Origin: Pedobacter yonginensis
GTDB lineage: Bacteria; Bacteroidota; Bacteroidia; Sphingobacteriales; Sphingobacteriaceae
DNA length: 64,000 nt
Assembly: GCF_003173595.1 (NCBI RefSeq)
Contig: NZ_QGNZ01000004.1
Coordinates: 620,001 to 684,000, forward strand
Direction of reading: 5' to 3'
The stretch's first letter is position 1, and every line of letters starts with the position of its first letter. Both the position numbers and the translations under genes were made by a program. The notes under the pieces are model-generated. The model did not search any database and had not been told where the DNA came from. It saw only the letters and a program-made list of their open reading frames with translations. Shown one piece after another: positions 7,020-55,012 of the stretch.

Positions 7020-8245
7020 GCATCATCCGCGCTGAAAACCTAAAGTCTTTTAAATGTTTTGGAAAGCAGTTGCAGTATTTCATTTTAATGTTCGTCCCGC
7101 CAAACGCTTTACTTCGTGCTCGCTTATGTCGGGTTTAGATGGCGCATTGGTGCTTCTATTAGTGGTATCAAGGCGCAGAAAACAAACACTTGTTAGGTGG
7201 CGAACGGTATAAGTTCATGTGGGGGGCTTGACGAGCACGAGAGGTCTTAATTCGATGCGCAATATTATCCCCGCTGAAAAGCTTGGAACCTAACTTCTTT
7301 TAAATGTTTTGGAAAGCAGTTGCAGTATTTCATTTTAATGTTCGTCCCGCCAAACGCTTTACTTCGTGCTCGCTTATGTCGGGTTTAGATGGCGCATTGG
7401 TGCTTCTATTAGTGGTATCAAGGCGCAGAAAACAAACACTTGTTAGGTGGCGAACGGTATAAGTTCATGTGGGGGGCTTGACGAGCACGAGAGGTCTTAA
7501 TTCGATGCGCAATATTATCCCCGCTGAAAAGCTTGGAACCTAACTTCTTTTAAATGTTTTGGAAAGCAGTTGCAGTATATCATTTTAATGTTCGTCCCGC
7601 CAAACGCTTTACTTCGTGCTCGCTTATGTCGGGTTTAGGTGGCGCATTGGTGCTTCTATTAATGGTGTCAAGGTGCATAAATTAAACGCTTGTTAGGTGG
7701 AGAATGATATGAAAAATCATGTTTGGGGGCTTGCAAAGCATGAGAGATTTTCAAGTATAGTTGGGGCATCATCTTCGGTAAAAGCTTGGAACCTAAACTC
7801 TTTTAAATGTTTTGGAAAGCAGTTGCAGTATTTCATTTTAATGTTCGTCCCGCCAAACGCTTTACTTCGTGCTCGCTTATGTCGGGTTTAGGTGGCGCAT
7901 TGGTGCTTCTATTAATGGTTTAAAGGCGCAGAAAATAAATGCTTTGTTAGGTGGCGAACGGTGTAAAAATCATGTTTTGTGGCGTACCAAGGTTATAAGA
8001 TTTATTAATGCAAAATTGGTGGGTGATGCATCGATTGATGATTCAACGGTTTGCCTATCAATGATTTAGTTGACTGATGCCTTGATGTTTTTGTTTACGG
8101 TTGAGGGGAGGGGATTAAGTTAAAATGAGGTGGTTTTGCTGGCCAAACCCGATTGAAATGGAAAGCGCCCGATTCTTCATCGGGCCTTGTAATGTAAAGC
8201 GGGAGTAACGCCAAATTGAAACACAGGTTTTGCTTTTCAAAAGTT
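7020..8245. repeat. Palindromic repeat locus 1: four 250-bp left arms plus one right arm
   Basis: Fills the gap between the OmpH-like gene and gyrB. A unit with TTTTGGAAAGC then GTCCCGCC and TCGGGTTTA recurs four times; the GGAAAGC box starts at 7061, 7311, 7561 and 7814 (period 250, 250, 253). After the last copy a single right arm follows: AAACCCGATTG (8145-8155), a 7-bp hairpin GCCCGAT/ATCGGGC with loop TCTTC (8167-8185), AGCGGGA (8198-8204) and GCTTTTCAAAA (8232-8242). Three segments of the last left arm pair with it: 7810-7820 with 8232-8242, 7848-7853 with 8199-8204, and 7882-7889 with 8145-8152. No convincing coding frame is present. Confidence 0.85.
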
Positions 8246-20874: not shown

Positions 20875-21195
20875 GGAGATTTTAGTTCTATTTTGCTTAG
20901 GTCATCAAGGGTTAATGCTTAAAAAAAATTTTTCCCGCAGATTAACACAGATCAGGTAGCGCAGATTAGGCAGATTTTAGTTTTCTTTTGCTTAGGTCAT
21001 TAAGGGTTAATGCTTATCAAAATTTTTCCCGCAGATTAACACAGATCAGGTAGCGCAGATTAGGCAGATTTTAGTTTTTCTTGCTTAGGTTATTAAGGGT
21101 TAATGTTTATCAAAATTTTTCCCGCAGATAAACGCAGATTCATTACCTCAGGTTAACACAGATCAGGTAGCGCAGATTAACACAGATTTGGCCGA
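20875..21195. repeat. Tandem array of about 94 bp units (CCCGCAGATTAACACAGAT type)
   Basis: Non-coding array between convergent pyrD and the AlkD-like gene. CCCGCAGAT begins at 20934, 21028 and 21121 (periods 94 and 93). Each unit ends in a run of GCAGATTA/ACACAGAT words followed by TTTTAGTT, CTTAGGTCAT and AAGGGTTAATG. The last copy is shortened and partly rearranged. I see no coding frame and no inverted arms. It fills nearly the whole 438-nt gap. Confidence 0.85.
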
Positions 21196-37548: not shown

Positions 37549-37691
37549 AAGAGGTTATATTTAAGTTAGTATTACAAACATATAAAATCGATTTAGTTTT
37601 TAAATGTTAATCCGTAATTAATTGATTTATTGATGATTATTATTCTAAAAAGGTGTGTGATTTGGCATTAGAAAGGCGGTGTATGTTACAA

Positions 37692-38878
37692 TTGTTTCCG
37701 CTCAAAGCATGTATTCAAAATTTGGAGAGCAGTTGCAGTGCCTGTCGGTTTTTGCCGTCCCACTTTCCATTACGCCATGAAGAATGGCTTCATTACAATC
37801 GGGTCTATTTTACTTCTGTTTGATGTGCTTGGCATAGGCATCTTCCCAAACAGTGTTAACGATTGTTTCACTGTTGGTTGATGTGTTACCCAAATGATTA
37901 TTAAACCAATTGCCCAAATGGCTATTTGGAAAAGCCTGCCTTTCTAAACCGTATTGAAGCGGTATCCCCCGATTTTTTCAATCGGGGATTTAGCGGAAAG
38001 GCGGACTGCGGTGAGCGAAGAAGCAGCACAGCACCTTTCCAAAATAAAAGAAATAACTTCTGTGTGGCTGATCCAACCAAATAAACTTGTCTCCGCTCAA
38101 AGCATGTATTCGAAATTTGGAGAGCAGTTGCAGTGCCTGTCGGTTTCTACTGTCCCGCTTTCCATTACGCCATGAAAAATGGCTTCATTACAATCAGGTC
38201 TATTTTACTTCTGTTTGATGTGCTTGGCATAGGCATCTTCCCAAACAGTGTTAACGATTGTTTGAGTGTTGGTTGATGTGTTACCCAAATGATTATTAAA
38301 CCAATTGCCCAATGGCTATTTGTAGAAGTCTGCGTTTCTAAACCGTATTGAAGCGGTATCCCTGATTTTTTCAATCGGGGATTTAGCGGAAAGACGGACT
38401 GCGGTGAGCGAAGAAGCAGTGCAGCACCTTTCCAAATTGGAAAAAATAATTTCGGTGTGGCTGATCTAAGGAAATAAACTTGCCTCCACTCAAAGCATGT
38501 ATTCAAAACTTGGAGAGCAGTTGCAATGCCTGTCGGTTTCTACTGTCCCGCTTTCCATTACGCCATGAAGAATGGCTTCATTACAATCGGGTCTATTTTA
38601 CTTCTGTTTGATGTGCTTGGCATAGGCATCTTCCCAAACAGTGTTAACGATTGTTTGAGTGTTTGAGGGGTTCCCCAAATGATTATTAAACCAATAGCCC
38701 AATGGCTATTTGTAAAAGCCTGCGTTCCTAAACCGTATTGAAGCGGTATCCCCCGATTTTTTCAATCGGGGATTTAGCGGAAAGACGGACTGCGGCGAGC
38801 GATGAAGCAGTACAGCACCTTTCCAAAATAAAAGAAATAATTTCTGTGTGGCTTATCCAATCAAATAAATAGCCTTCG
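37692..38878. repeat. Palindromic repeat locus 2: three units of about 394 bp
   Basis: Three tandem copies between two response-regulator genes. TTTGGAGAGC starts at 37721 and 38116, with CTTGGAGAGC at 38509 (periods 395, 393). Each unit has GTCCCGCTTTCC-like sequence 17 nt after the CAGT that closes the first box, then ATCGGGTCTA; later AAACCGTATTG (37946-37956 in copy 1), an 8-bp hairpin CCCCGATT/AATCGGGG with loop TTTTC (37967-37986), GGAAAGGCGGAC, and CCTTTCCAAAA. In copy 2 the hairpin has a C-to-T change that would give a G-U pair. First copy starts GTCCCAC instead of GTCCCGC. Short frames inside are not conserved between copies. Confidence 0.85.
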
Positions 38879-49960: not shown

Positions 49961-49994
49961 GCCAAGGACTGTCTGGGTTTTGAGTGAAGCAATG

Positions 49995-50168
49995 ATTGGA
50001 TTTTGAATGAATGAGTTTTGAATGATTGGATTTTGAATGAATGAGTTTTGAATGATTGAATTTTGAATGAATGAGTTTTGAATGATTGAATTTTGAATGA
50101 ATGAGTTTTGAATGATTGAATTTTGAATGTTGGAGCAAATTGCCGGTTTCATTCAAAATTCAATCATT
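49995..50168. repeat. 30-bp tandem repeat ending in a 19-bp inverted copy
   Basis: A 30-bp unit (starting ATTGGATTTT/ATTGAATTTT) recurs at 49995, 50025, 50055, 50085 and partly 50115; each unit is itself two related halves around TTTTGAATG. After the last copy, AATGATTGAATTTTGAATG (50111-50129) meets its exact reverse complement at 50150-50168, with a 20-nt loop. The long hairpin lies between two convergent genes and could stop transcription from both sides. Confidence 0.9.
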
Positions 50169-50205
50169 CATTAATTAGCTAATTTTCTCCTAGCTGATGG
50201 GTAGG

Positions 50206-52510: not shown

Positions 52511-54301
52511 TTAAATACTTCTGCTTTCTTCTTCTAAAAGTTGGTTGTTATACATCTCTGTGTAGGCGCCATTTAGGCTAAGTAATTGGTGGTGTGTGCC
52601 TTGTTCGATAATTTTGCCCTCATCAAGCACCAAAATCTTATCTGCATTTTTAATCGTCGAAATTCTGTGCGCAATCAAAATACTCGTTTTTCCAAGCATA
52701 ATTTCACCTAGATTTTGCAAAATTTCTTCTTCCGTTTTGGTATCAACCGCTGAGAGACAATCGTCGAAAATTAAAATTTTTGGCGATTTGATTAGTGCTC
52801 TTGCGATGGATACCCGTTGCTTTTGCCCGCCTGAAAGCGTAATCCCACGTTCACCCAGCATGGTTTCAAAGCGTTCTTCAAAATCCATTATGTTGTGGTA
52901 CACCGAGGCATTTTTTGCGGCATCAAACACTTGCTCATCCGTAACTTCATCTAAACCAAAGGCAATATTATTTTTTATGCTATCCGAAAAAAGAAAAACT
53001 TCTTGGGGCACGAAGCCAATCTGCCCACGATAATTTTTTAAGTTCAGATTAGTTAGATCCTTTCCATCAATCTTAATTTGTCCATCTTGAACATCGTACA
53101 TGCGCATAATTAAATTGGCCAAGGTAGATTTACCTGAACCTGTTTTGCCAATAATGGCTACAAATTCGCCGTTTTTAATTTCGAAATTTACGTTTTTCAA
53201 AGCAACAATGCCCGTATCAGGGTAAGTGAAACTTACGTTTTCAAAGCTAATGTTGCCCTGTAAATCAAATGTTTCGCTTTGTTTAGATTGAATATCAGAA
53301 GGAATATCCAAAAACTCATTAATCCTTTTTTGTGAAGCTGCAGCCCTTTGAATTAGAGAGGTTACCCAGCCCAGCATCGTTACCGGGAAGGTAAGTTGGT
53401 TGATGTAAATAATGAATTCTGCAATGTTGCCAGCCGTAATGCTGCCATTCATCACTTGGATTCCGCCGATATAAATGGTTAGTATCGTGCTTAAACCAAT
53501 TAGTAGAAGCATGGTTGGGTAAAATAAGGCCGATACCCTAACCAAGCTCATCGAGTCTCTCTTATAAGCTGTGCTTTGTACTTCGAAGATTTCTCTGGTA
53601 TAATCTTCTCTAACATAAGATTTTATAATCCTGATGCCCGAAAAACGTTCTTGCACAAAAGTGGATAAATCGGATAAACGTTCTTGAATTTTTCCGCTTT
53701 TTTTAAAAATTAATGTATTTACATAATAAATAATCACCACTAAAAAGGGAAGTGGCAATAAGCAATAGGTAGCCAGTTTAGAATTCACATCAAACATCGA
53801 CCAAATAATTAATACCGATAAAACGAAGGTATTAATGGTGTACATAATGGCTGGCCCTACATACATCCTTACCCGGTTTACATCTTCTGTAGCTCGGTTC
53901 ATTAAGTCGCCCGTGTTGTTGCGGCGATAAAAGCCCAAACTCAGTTCTTGGTAGTGCTGGTAAATATCGTTTTTCATATCAAACTCGATATGCCTAGACA
54001 TCAATATGATGGTTTGACGCATGAAAAAAAGAAATAATCCACGCAATATATAGAGCGCAATAACCAATAAGCCGAAATAGAGCAAATTGCTGCTAAAGAT
54101 GCTGTAAATGATTTCTTGCCGATCAAAGCCCTGAAAAAGATTGTAAATCTGAATGTTTTCGGTAATTAAATCTACCGCATAACCAATAACCTGGGCAGGC
54201 ACAACGCCAAAAATGTTAGATATGACAACGAAAATACTTCCAGGGATAATCCACCATTTATATTTTAGAAAATACTTATTTAATCTGCTCAGATGTTTCA
54301 T
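52511..54301 (-). CDS. ABC exporter, fused permease and ATPase (MsbA-like)
   Basis: 596-residue half-transporter that would work as a homodimer. Six membrane helices lie in about residues 15-315 (for example WWIIPGSIFVVISNIFGVVP). The ATPase has Walker A GKTGSGKSTLA near 375, Q-loop FVPQEVFLFSD, signature LSGGQKQRVSIARAL near 480 and Walker B ILIFDDCLSAVD (ending DCLSAVD, with Asp in place of the usual catalytic Glu after Walker B: D-D-C rather than D-E-P/A). MsbA-like lipid A or multidrug export is possible; substrate is not readable. A -7 promoter box ends 6 nt before the ATG. Divergent from repeat locus 3 and the leucine dehydrogenase gene. Confidence 0.9.
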   Translation of the reverse strand: MKHLSRLNKYFLKYKWWIIPGSIFVVISNIFGVVPAQVIGYAVDLITENIQIYNLFQGFDRQEIIYSIFSSNLLYFGLLVIALYILRGLFLFFMRQTIILMSRHIEFDMKNDIYQHYQELSLGFYRRNNTGDLMNRATEDVNRVRMYVGPAIMYTINTFVLSVLIIWSMFDVNSKLATYCLLPLPFLVVIIYYVNTLIFKKSGKIQERLSDLSTFVQERFSGIRIIKSYVREDYTREIFEVQSTAYKRDSMSLVRVSALFYPTMLLLIGLSTILTIYIGGIQVMNGSITAGNIAEFIIYINQLTFPVTMLGWVTSLIQRAAASQKRINEFLDIPSDIQSKQSETFDLQGNISFENVSFTYPDTGIVALKNVNFEIKNGEFVAIIGKTGSGKSTLANLIMRMYDVQDGQIKIDGKDLTNLNLKNYRGQIGFVPQEVFLFSDSIKNNIAFGLDEVTDEQVFDAAKNASVYHNIMDFEERFETMLGERGITLSGGQKQRVSIARALIKSPKILIFDDCLSAVDTKTEEEILQNLGEIMLGKTSILIAHRISTIKNADKILVLDEGKIIEQGTHHQLLSLNGAYTEMYNNQLLEEESRSI

Positions 54302-54315: not shown

Positions 54316-54397
54316 GATAAATTTGTTATTTCGAGCCACATAAATATCCATGTAAGGCCGTGGTAGGAGGCTCAGATACCATAAAAATTTATCTTAC

Positions 54398-54885
54398 ATT
54401 AATCTTTATTGGGGCATCTGTTGCGAAACGAATAATTTTTTGGAAATGAACGTTCAGTAATGCTCTTGGTCATGCAGTCCCGCTCTCCGTTTCAATTCCT
54501 GCTCGCTCGCATTAATCTTTATTGGGGCATCTGTTGCGAAACGAATAATTTTTTGGAAATGAACGTTCAGTAATGCTTTTGGTTATGCAGTCCCGCTCTC
54601 CGTTTTAATCCCTGGTCGCTCTCATTAATTTTTATTTAGCCTTCTGTTGCGAAACAAATAATTTTTTGGAAATGAACGTTCAGTAATGCTTTTGGTTATG
54701 CAGTCCCGCTCTCTGCTTTACTCCGTTTCACTTCGTGCTCGCTCCGATCGGGTTTAATAACAACGATGCTATATTGCAATAGCCGTGAATCATAAACCCG
54801 ATTGCACGAATGCCAATTTTTTTCAAATTGGCAGCAGTAAAAGCGGGACAGGTGTTTCAGATGAAAAGCTGAACGTTCATTTCCT
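54398..54885. repeat. Palindromic repeat locus 3: three 113-bp left arms plus one right arm
   Basis: Left arms start at 54398, 54511 and 54624 (period exactly 113), each with TTTTGGAAATGAACGTTCAG and GTCCCGCT. The last one continues to ATCGGGTTTA (54747-54756). Then come an apical hairpin GCTAT/ATAGC (54768-54783), TAAACCCGAT (54793-54802), an 8-bp hairpin GCCAATTT/AAATTGGC with loop TTTTC (54812-54832), AGCGGGAC (54843-54850) and CTGAACGTTCATTTCC (54870-54885). Three nested arms pair perfectly: 54668-54683 with 54870-54885 (16 bp), 54703-54710 with 54843-54850 (8 bp), and 54747-54756 with 54793-54802 (10 bp). It lies between divergent genes. Confidence 0.92.
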
Positions 54886-55012
54886 AATCATTTTTACAAC
54901 AATAAGATAATAGCCCCTGCACTTGGCGAACAAATTTTGTTATTGTTTATTTTAATGCGTGTATTAACGGTTTTTATTTTTAATTTTGCGACAAGTTAGC
55001 CGAACATACAAT

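What the first reader, a model, noticed from the sequence alone, without database searches (positions are those of the whole stretch)
54398..54885. A repeat family with conserved pairing but divergent sequence: possible structured RNA or palindromic element (locus 3 is the clearest)
Seen: three nested perfect arm pairs (16, 10 and 8 bp) plus two hairpins make about 218 nt fold as one long hairpin (54668-54885). Loci 1 and 2 in this window keep the same order of boxes and the same 17-18 nt spacing between the CAGT and GTCCCGC boxes. The paired sequences nonetheless change together: the outer arm is GGAAATGAACGTTCAG here but TTTTGGAAAGC in locus 1, each with its own complement, and the right-arm hairpin is GCCAATTT, GCCCGAT or CCCCGATT with matching partners and a TTTTC/TCTTC loop. 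Such covariation points to a selected structure. Inference: a new family of structured RNA, or a non-autonomous palindromic element of the REP/MITE kind. I know no named family with these boxes.
Basis: partly seen in the sequence, partly recalled or inferred. Interest (0 to 1): 0.88.

Follow-up and report, generated by a model that had tools for sequence, protein, structure and literature searches.

The report
Mobile hairpin repeat labelled Flavo-1 RNA
The folded repeat is real, but its building block is an already catalogued and unexplained motif called Flavo-1, which here looks like a many-copy jumping DNA hairpin of Bacteroidota rather than an ordinary small RNA gene; what moves it is not known.

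Summary
In detail: 54668-54885 folds at -90.9 kcal/mol (z -9.3), and loci 1 and 2 share its anatomy. It is not nameless: halves of loci 1 and 2 match Rfam Flavo-1 (RF01705) above threshold; locus 3 matches weakly (24.8 bits). Each element is two Flavo-1 units head to head inside inverted arms. The own genome has 83 matches at E<=1, 47 over cut-off, many in tandem. Spread is patchy: 26 of 40 genomes of the genus, 44 of 296 of the phylum. The orthologous spacer is filled in some relatives, short in others. Box pairs covary on both sides. In the variable stem, deviations on the Rfam strand are G-T 21, A-C 3, which suggests that folding of one strand, RNA or single-stranded DNA, is selected. Orientation follows neither replication nor, overall, transcription. 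Best reading: a non-autonomous mobile repeat, REP/BIME-like in behaviour. The mover was not found. RAYT/Y1 transposases co-occur with it within the genus, but rarely lie beside Flavo-1 (1 of 46 loci), those read carry other repeats, and two Flavo-1-rich genomes show none.

The parts
54397..54735 (+). locus 3: three tandem copies (113 nt each) of flank + left outer arm + left half
   Evidence: the repeat finder family D5, 100/95/82%
54668..54884 (+). locus 3: complete head-to-head element, folds as one long hairpin
   Evidence: fold of 54668-54885 -90.9 kcal/mol, z -9.3; arms 54668-54683 / 54869-54884
54698..54759 (-). locus 3 left Flavo-1 unit
   Evidence: RF01705 24.8 bits, E 0.0079, model 1-76, below the gathering score of 42
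54793..54849 (+). locus 3 right unit with terminal hairpin 54812-54832; identified by boxes and pairing only
   Evidence: boxes TAAACCCGAT and AGCGGGAC; no Flavo-1 hit here at E<=10
7037..8039 (+). locus 1: four tandem copies (250 nt) carrying the left half (TTTTGGAAAGCA arm, GTCCCGCC box, CGGGTTTA box)
   Evidence: the repeat finder D1, positions
8137..8210 (+). locus 1 right half = Flavo-1 unit
   Evidence: RF01705 44 bits, E 3.6e-06, over the gathering score
8231..8242 (+). locus 1 right outer arm TGCTTTTCAAAA
   Evidence: complement of 7057-7068 with one mismatch
37572..38869 (+). locus 2: three tandem units of about 393 nt
   Evidence: the repeat finder D2 and D4
37752..37810 (-). locus 2 unit 1, left Flavo-1
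   Evidence: 31.4 bits
37942..38011 (+). locus 2 unit 1, right Flavo-1
   Evidence: 45.3 bits
38147..38205 (-). locus 2 unit 2, left Flavo-1
   Evidence: 37.3 bits
38336..38404 (+). locus 2 unit 2, right Flavo-1
   Evidence: 44.9 bits
38540..38598 (-). locus 2 unit 3, left Flavo-1
   Evidence: 40.0 bits
38726..38795 (+). locus 2 unit 3, right Flavo-1
   Evidence: 46.1 bits

Best explanation
Locus 3 is one copy of a high-copy, non-autonomous mobile repeat whose building block is the motif that Rfam files as Flavo-1 'RNA'. In this genus copies are often composites: two Flavo-1 units head to head around a short linker, inside longer inverted outer arms, often multiplied in tandem; in the genomes of g24 (Flavobacterium-like) the units that I read stand alone, about 84 nt. 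Shown: repetition, intergenic placement, patchy distribution, filled and short versions of one orthologous spacer, two-sided covariation, and an excess of G-T over A-C deviations in the variable stem on one strand. Inferred: one definite strand, exposed as single-stranded DNA, folds into the hairpin and is recognised and moved in trans by an enzyme that was not identified; tandem arrays then grow by slippage at the hairpin.
For: 83 Flavo-1 matches in the own genome at E<=1, 47 over the cut-off (150 of 1024 candidates scored); 5 of 14 control genomes ring at E<=1 but none over the cut-off. 52 distinct loci: 46 between ORFs, 4 overlapping ORFs of only 90-179 aa, 2 at contig ends; none inside a longer gene. 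Units of about 200 bp shared at 85-91% between unrelated loci. Patchy spread: 26 of 40 genomes of the genus, 44 of 296 of the phylum. One orthologous spacer: Flavo-1-like copies in 7 of 24 genomes compared, short spacers in G003, G005, G008, G010, G021 (elements recognised by eye). Covariation in 193 distinct units: L-17/R16 Watson-Crick in 187 with all four pair types, L-16/R15 188, L-13/R12 183, L-8/R7 173; shuffled means 109, 116, 84, 79. Variable stem, 233 units: WC 2513, G-T 21, A-C 3, other 12; in the 103 of them found by DNA pattern 16 to 1, that is 11 units to 1 (binomial p 0.006). No fixed orientation to transcription overall (44 sense, 60 antisense) or replication (59 to 55 over four genomes).
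Against: No enzyme found: no transposase or recombinase was recognised in the recurrent neighbour clusters of 161 loci, and I saw no copy with a gene between the halves, though no systematic search for one was made. No excision, target-site duplication or extrachromosomal form was shown. No match in plasmids (two queries) or phages (one query), none in viral contigs for one exact pattern. Several copies in g24 sit at the same place in different genomes, so they are at least partly old and vertically inherited. The G-T excess does not extend to all box columns: over the nine in-register columns with more than 60% Watson-Crick it is G-T 16, A-C 59, of which 54 come from L-4/R3 and L-19/R18. Units of the two Flavobacterium-like sets lie more often antisense than sense (53 to 31, p 0.02). 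G-T wobble fits RNA as well as single-stranded DNA.
Confidence: 0.55

Rival explanations
1. A REP/BIME family proper: the repeats are moved by one of the genome's RAYT/Y1 (HUH) transposases acting in trans.
For: Within the genus, Flavo-1 and Y1_Tnp occur together: both 24, Flavo-1 only 2 (G038, G039), Y1 only 1 (G006, an 83-aa frame), neither 13, of 40 genomes. A RAYT profile also finds Y1-like proteins in G038; a second RAYT profile finds none in the 14 Flavo-1-free genomes of the genus. G015, nested among Flavo-1-free genomes, has 2 Flavo-1 matches and 1 Y1. Head-to-head dimers and tandem clusters are typical of REPs (PMC3733652, passages). PMC6006769 reports that a Bacteroidetes subclass (2.6) is flanked by atypical structures with copies elsewhere (passages and section 25).
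Against: Of 46 loci brought in by Y1/RAYT searches (a few of them doubtful fragments) only one, L073, has a Flavo-1 match within about 1.5 kb; L044, L045, L063 and L067, read by eye, carry other repeats. On a 25-genome tree the presence of Flavo-1 needs only 2 changes, so the co-occurrence may be shared ancestry. G192 and G138, each with 15 Flavo-1 matches (the scoring cap), have no Y1 by PF01797 or by either profile. In the phylum 36 of 44 genomes with Flavo-1 and 174 of 252 without have Y1, though PF01797 misses some RAYTs.
Confidence: 0.2
2. A structured RNA (small RNA or cis element) that has been spread as a repeat; the RNA is what is selected.
For: Strong covariation and G-T excess in the stem on the Rfam strand, like the 83 to 37 of unidirectional terminator-like hairpins in the same DNA. 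PMC2864571 lists Flavo-1 as 'probably' an RNA (table entry). Units of the genus set lie somewhat more often sense than antisense (13 to 7, p 0.26).
Against: No fixed orientation to genes: 44 sense, 60 antisense, 25 convergent, 30 divergent of 159 classed units. PMC9723704 (passage): in F. [quoted passage not shown] Dozens of matches per genome in some members of the genus and none in others.
Confidence: 0.2
3. A MITE of a classical DDE transposase: the inverted arms are the transposase ends and the hairpin is incidental.
For: Long inverted outer arms in the composites; solo units often read TTAGGAGC...GGGGCTAA, with partly matching ends (by eye).
Against: Covariation throughout the inner stem is not expected if only the ends matter; no parental element seen among neighbours. 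No DDE family was searched for.
Confidence: 0.15
4. Chromosomal protein-binding or terminator-like palindromes kept by host function, not mobile.
For: Intergenic and in several cases at the same place in different g24 genomes. The box columns alone do not show a clean strand asymmetry.
Against: All-or-none spread within one genus; subfamilies at unrelated loci; a symmetric duplex site would give no G-T/A-C asymmetry in the stem; divergent gene pairs are as common around it as convergent ones (30 and 25).
Confidence: 0.1

Closest known systems
Rfam RF01705 Flavo-1 (PMC2864571, passages)
   Same: Same boxes, same pairing scheme, score over the gathering threshold for the right halves of loci 1 and 2.
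   Different: Rfam files it as an sRNA gene of 76 positions; here units occur head to head in larger palindromes, in tandem, in dozens per genome and without fixed orientation. Locus 3 itself scores below threshold.
REP / BIME elements with RAYT transposases (PMC3733652 passages; PMC6006769 passages and one section)
   Same: High copy, extragenic, hairpin, solo or head-to-head dimers, tandem clusters, patchy spread.
   Different: Matches run from 36 to 134 nt, mostly 58 or more, instead of 20-40 bp; internal-loop architecture and a variable terminal stem; found beside 1 of 46 Y1 loci.
MITEs (general knowledge)
   Same: Short, non-coding, inverted ends, many copies.
   Different: No parental transposon or target duplication shown; covariation throughout the hairpin.
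Integron attC sites (recalled, no call)
   Same: Folded single strand with conserved boxes, unpaired positions and a variable terminal structure.
   Different: No cassette array noticed, no fixed place behind genes, box sequences differ; no integrase test was made.

Membership tests
Rfam Flavo-1 (RF01705) | covariance-model score at or above 42 bits | tested here: met
   Right halves of loci 1 and 2: 44 to 46.1 bits; left halves of locus 2 31.4-40 bits, below it.
Rfam Flavo-1 (RF01705) | the same score for the reported locus 3 itself | tested here: not met
   Left half 24.8 bits, E 0.0079; right half no Flavo-1 hit. It is placed here by boxes, anatomy and likeness to scoring copies, not by score.
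Rfam Flavo-1 (RF01705) | consensus pairing supported by covariation | tested here: met
   193 distinct units; some in-register columns are mostly G-A.
REP/BIME (RAYT-dependent) | many extragenic hairpin copies | tested here: met
REP/BIME (RAYT-dependent) | unit of 20-40 bp | tested here: not met
   Matches run from 36 to 134 nt, mostly 58 or more.
REP/BIME (RAYT-dependent) | same repeat beside a RAYT gene | tested here: not met
   1 of 46 loci from Y1/RAYT searches.
REP/BIME (RAYT-dependent) | repeat present only with a RAYT in the genome | tested here: inconclusive
   Near-perfect in the genus but few independent changes; G192 and G138 lack a detectable Y1.
MITE | terminal inverted repeats | tested here: met
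   16-bp perfect outer arms in locus 3.
MITE | target-site duplication and a parental transposon | tested here: inconclusive
   Orthologous spacers too diverged; no parent recognised among neighbours.
RNA gene | discrete transcript from the model strand | not testable with these tools
   No RNA data; the only published statement seen is a passage of PMC9723704.
Integron attC | cognate integrase and gene cassettes | not tested
   Resemblance only.

The most novel reading that the evidence does not exclude
Flavo-1 units are the folded single-stranded DNA substrate of a still unknown mobilisation system of Bacteroidota, distinct from RAYT/REP and from integrons: the hairpin strand with its G-A-rich internal loops and a freely replaceable terminal stem is what the enzyme reads, so sequence can drift while structure is kept.
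Probability: 0.23. Interest if true: 0.8.

Novelty: new variant of a known kind. Interest (0 to 1): 0.55.

Why it matters
A family listed since 2010 as a probable small RNA of unknown function would change class to a mobile repeat; surveys that count it among abundant sRNA families (PMC9029176, passages) would be counting repeats. It also offers a test from sequence alone: the balance of G-T and A-C deviations in a stem hints whether one strand is folded. Because related genomes are either rich in the element or free of it, the enzyme that moves it could be sought by comparing gene content.

Tried and rejected
Wobble test, first version: over the whole best hairpin it gave G-T 12, A-C 24, which seemed to speak against RNA. 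By inspection many of the A-C cells came from a constant bulged C at the ATC|C...G|AT junction, so the count was discarded and repeated anchored on the variable stem. In one search, 42 of 275 distinct units had no anchored stem and were dropped (35 own, 4 genus, 3 genome contigs).

Wobble in the boxes: at five covarying pairs it is G-T 16, A-C 2, but this was a choice of pairs; over all nine in-register columns with more than 60% Watson-Crick it is 16 to 59.

RAYT as mover: PF01797 alone first suggested support, then rejection; a RAYT profile showed that PF01797 misses RAYTs in G256, G272 and G038, so rejection was softened to 'not supported'. Searches (14 genomes; 26 genomes) covered chosen genomes only; the first profile was not run on the Flavo-1-free genomes.

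Enzyme hunt by neighbours: 566 ORFs around 161 loci; the printed clusters with three or more loci look like housekeeping genes, judged by reading one sequence each, without a family search.

Replication bias: my first sorting by eye gave 26 of 41 for G260 alone and 61 to 52 for four genomes; with explicit boundaries it is 24 of 41 and 59 to 55. Boundaries rest on 4 to 20 samples per genome. G335 was left out because its skew is too weak.

Gene context: own-genome counts co-directional 30, convergent 10, divergent 6 were close to the window's adjacent ORF pairs 38, 9, 9. In one search, 25 units at an edge and 21 overlapping an ORF, of 205, were not classed.

Not done: R-scape, DDE-transposase or integrase families, metagenome scan, a search for copies with a gene between the halves, a phage search with the locus 3 element.

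Full report
What is there. The reported hairpin is exact and far from chance: 54668-54885 folds at -90.9 kcal/mol, z -9.3, 0 of 200 shuffles as low, with arms at the positions listed. The 339 bases 54397-54735 are three direct copies of 113 nt. Locus 1 is four copies of 250 nt (7037-8039) that carry the left half, followed by one right half; locus 2 is three whole units of about 393 nt. In locus 3 the element lies between divergent ORFs: one starting at 54301 on the minus strand and one at 54986 on the plus strand; I call them an ABC transporter and a leucine-dehydrogenase-like gene from recall of the protein sequences.

It has a name. Rfam finds Flavo-1 (RF01705) over its gathering score in the right halves of loci 1 and 2. 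A more permissive scan of locus 2 finds six units in three head-to-head pairs, three of them over the gathering score. The left half of locus 3 matches the whole Flavo-1 model at 24.8 bits, below threshold; its right half is not matched. So the element is [outer arm][Flavo-1, minus strand][linker][Flavo-1, plus strand][outer arm].

It is a repeat of the whole genome. The own genome holds 83 matches at E<=1, 47 over the cut-off, with 150 of 1024 candidates scored; 5 of 14 control genomes ring at E<=1, none over the cut-off. The pattern GTCCCGCTNTNCNNTNC occurs 13 times, its reversed control 0 times. The 79 matches with E below 0.01 fall into 52 distinct loci, which I fetched. By simple ORF calling 30 lie between co-directional, 10 between convergent and 6 between divergent ORFs; 4 overlap ORFs of 90-179 aa and 2 are at contig ends. 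Units of about 200 bp are shared at 85-91% between unrelated loci. In the genus 26 of 40 genomes have matches at E<=0.001, 24 over the cut-off, up to 89 per genome, which is the scoring cap. In the phylum it is 44 of 296, 36 over the cut-off (stricter filters, 15 candidates scored per genome). In the g24 genomes, which I call Flavobacterium-like because their units look like those of the named Flavobacterium loci, the units read by eye are solo, about 84 nt: TTAGGAGCTATTTCCCGC ... GGGGCTAA.

Filled and short sites. The spacer of locus 3 was sought in 41 genomes and compared in 24 of the 25 loci L075-L099, one lacking a flank. Seven, own included, hold Flavo-1-like elements there, recognised by eye; G003, G005, G008, G010 and G021 have 4-157 bp between the aligned genes. 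The other twelve are more distant and have 115-526 bp, in which I saw no Flavo-1 boxes. On the tree the seven form two groups, each supported at 100/100, inside a larger clade whose order is not resolved. The copies differ so much between genomes that they may be separate insertions or one old insertion that drifted; borders and target duplication could not be read.

Structure is selected. In 193 distinct units the boxes pair in a single register: L-17/R16 Watson-Crick in 187 (CG 139, GC 22, TA 17, AT 9; 109 expected from shuffling), L-16/R15 188 (116), L-13/R12 183 (TA 90, AT 85, GC 7, CG 1; 84), L-8/R7 173 plus 11 G-T (79), L-18/R17 182 (159). Columns L-5/R4, L-7/R6, L-10/R9, L-12/R11 and L-15/R14 are G-A in 124 to 149 of 193, so the hairpin has G-A-rich internal loops on the Rfam strand. 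Shuffling ignores relatedness and some off-register column pairs also exceed it, so the z values are not probabilities; but all four Watson-Crick types at one pair cannot come from one ancestral change. At one site with the same flank (L115 in G224, L238 in G276) the terminal stem differs in both arms, GTGTCTCGTT/AACGAGACAC against GTGCCG/CGGCAC.

One strand seems to be folded. In the variable terminal stem of 233 units the deviations are G-T 21, A-C 3, other 12 against 2513 Watson-Crick pairs, read on the Rfam strand. In the 103 units found by exact DNA pattern, where no RNA model chose the hits, they are 16 to 1, in 11 units against 1 (binomial p 0.006 by units). A duplex palindrome would show equal numbers, because a G-T on one strand is an A-C on the other. 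As a control, 229 terminator-like hairpins in the same DNA gave 83 to 37 when unidirectional and 15 to 21 when bidirectional. Against this: the box columns do not show the asymmetry as a whole. At the five covarying pairs it is 16 to 2, but over the nine in-register columns with more than 60% Watson-Crick it is 16 to 59, 54 of the 59 from L-4/R3 and L-19/R18. Some units are orthologous, so the counts are not fully independent. An earlier, unanchored count (G-T 12, A-C 24) was inflated by a constant bulge and is withdrawn.

RNA or DNA? Orientation to flanking co-directional genes is 44 sense and 60 antisense (p 0.14): genus 13 and 7, Flavobacterium-like sets 31 and 53 (p 0.02), so the two groups lean opposite ways. 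Orientation to replication is 59 to 55 over G260, G224, G111 and G157. PMC9723704 (passage) says that Flavo-1 hits in F. psychrophilum lie indistinctly in sense or antisense of transcribed regions and that many are outside them, though several 5' transcribed regions coincide with hits; PMC2864571 (passage) lists the motif as probably an RNA and not cis-regulatory; PMC9029176 (passages) names it among abundant sRNA families without a function. I prefer single-stranded DNA as the selected molecule; this is inference.

What moves it? Two Y1 transposases were found in the own genome; both have other repeats around them and no Flavo-1. Of 46 loci from Y1/RAYT searches (L044-L074 and L386-L400) one, L073, has a Flavo-1 match, of 37.3 bits. 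Within the genus the two co-occur in 24 of 40 genomes, with 2 and 1 exceptions and 13 lacking both; G038 is resolved by a better profile. The Flavo-1 pattern needs only two changes on a 25-genome tree. G192 and G138 are rich in Flavo-1 and gave no Y1 with PF01797 at E<=0.001, with a 7-sequence RAYT profile at E<=1, or with a 5-sequence profile of another RAYT type at E<=0.01. No other enzyme was recognised as recurrent next to 161 loci. Plasmids (two queries) and phages (one query) gave no match, and one exact pattern gave none in viral contigs. The mover is unknown.

Literature. Searches: 'Flavo-1 RNA' 0 papers; 'Flavo-1' with Bacteroidetes and motif 2; 'Flavo-1' 3; 'RF01705' 4; repeat, MITE, REP and RAYT combinations with Flavobacterium, Bacteroidetes or Pedobacter. 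In the listings and passages read I saw no statement that Flavo-1 is a mobile repeat; two of the four RF01705 papers (PMC3765529, PMC7682815) were seen only as listings, and papers outside the held library were not searched. RepRanger (PMC12306157, passage) tabulates two Flavobacterium species with many predicted REP sequences; 'Rfam' does not occur in its text. PMC6006769 (passages and section 25) describes atypical structures flanking a Bacteroidetes RAYT subclass; PMC3733652 (passages) describes head-to-head REP dimers and tandem clusters.

Verdict. Real, already named, and probably misunderstood: a Flavo-1 composite, most likely a mobile hairpin repeat read as a single strand. Novelty lies in the composite anatomy, the strand test and the change of class; the mechanism of movement is open.

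Noticed in passing
L045:740-2500 (own genome C10) and L063:850-2468 (G011): RAYT genes embedded in arrays of their own repeats (GTCGGGATTTGCAATCCCGAC type; CATCTAGCGCAAGTCTTAGCGCC type), unrelated to Flavo-1.
   Followed up: partly
L044:1957-2275 (own genome C1): A second Y1 transposase of 155 aa followed by repeats of the type ATGGGTAGCCCCTACGGGGCAT.
   Followed up: no
window 49976-50170: Tandem 15-nt repeats (AATGATTGAATTTTG / AATGAATGAGTTTTG) that end in a perfect inverted copy of 23 nt (50148-50170).
   Followed up: no
window 20888-21179: Three tandem copies about 93-94 nt apart containing CCCGCAGATTAACACAGATCAGGTAGCGCAGATTA or a variant of it.
   Followed up: no
L186, L202, L204 and similar in L123, terminal loops: The terminal hairpin of some Flavo-1 units contains another repeat-like sequence (CCTGAGCGTAGTCGAAG; in L123 CATTGAGCGTAGTCGAAATG), as if one repeat had entered another.
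   Followed up: no
L115 and L238 (same flank in G224 and G276); L106 and L110 (G272 and G196): At the same site the terminal stem differs between genomes in both arms while the boxes stay: stem replacement or template switching.
   Followed up: partly
own genome C1:1366128-1366850: Several copies similar to the left half of locus 3 (82-86% identity), spaced about 155 nt apart; not examined further.
   Followed up: no
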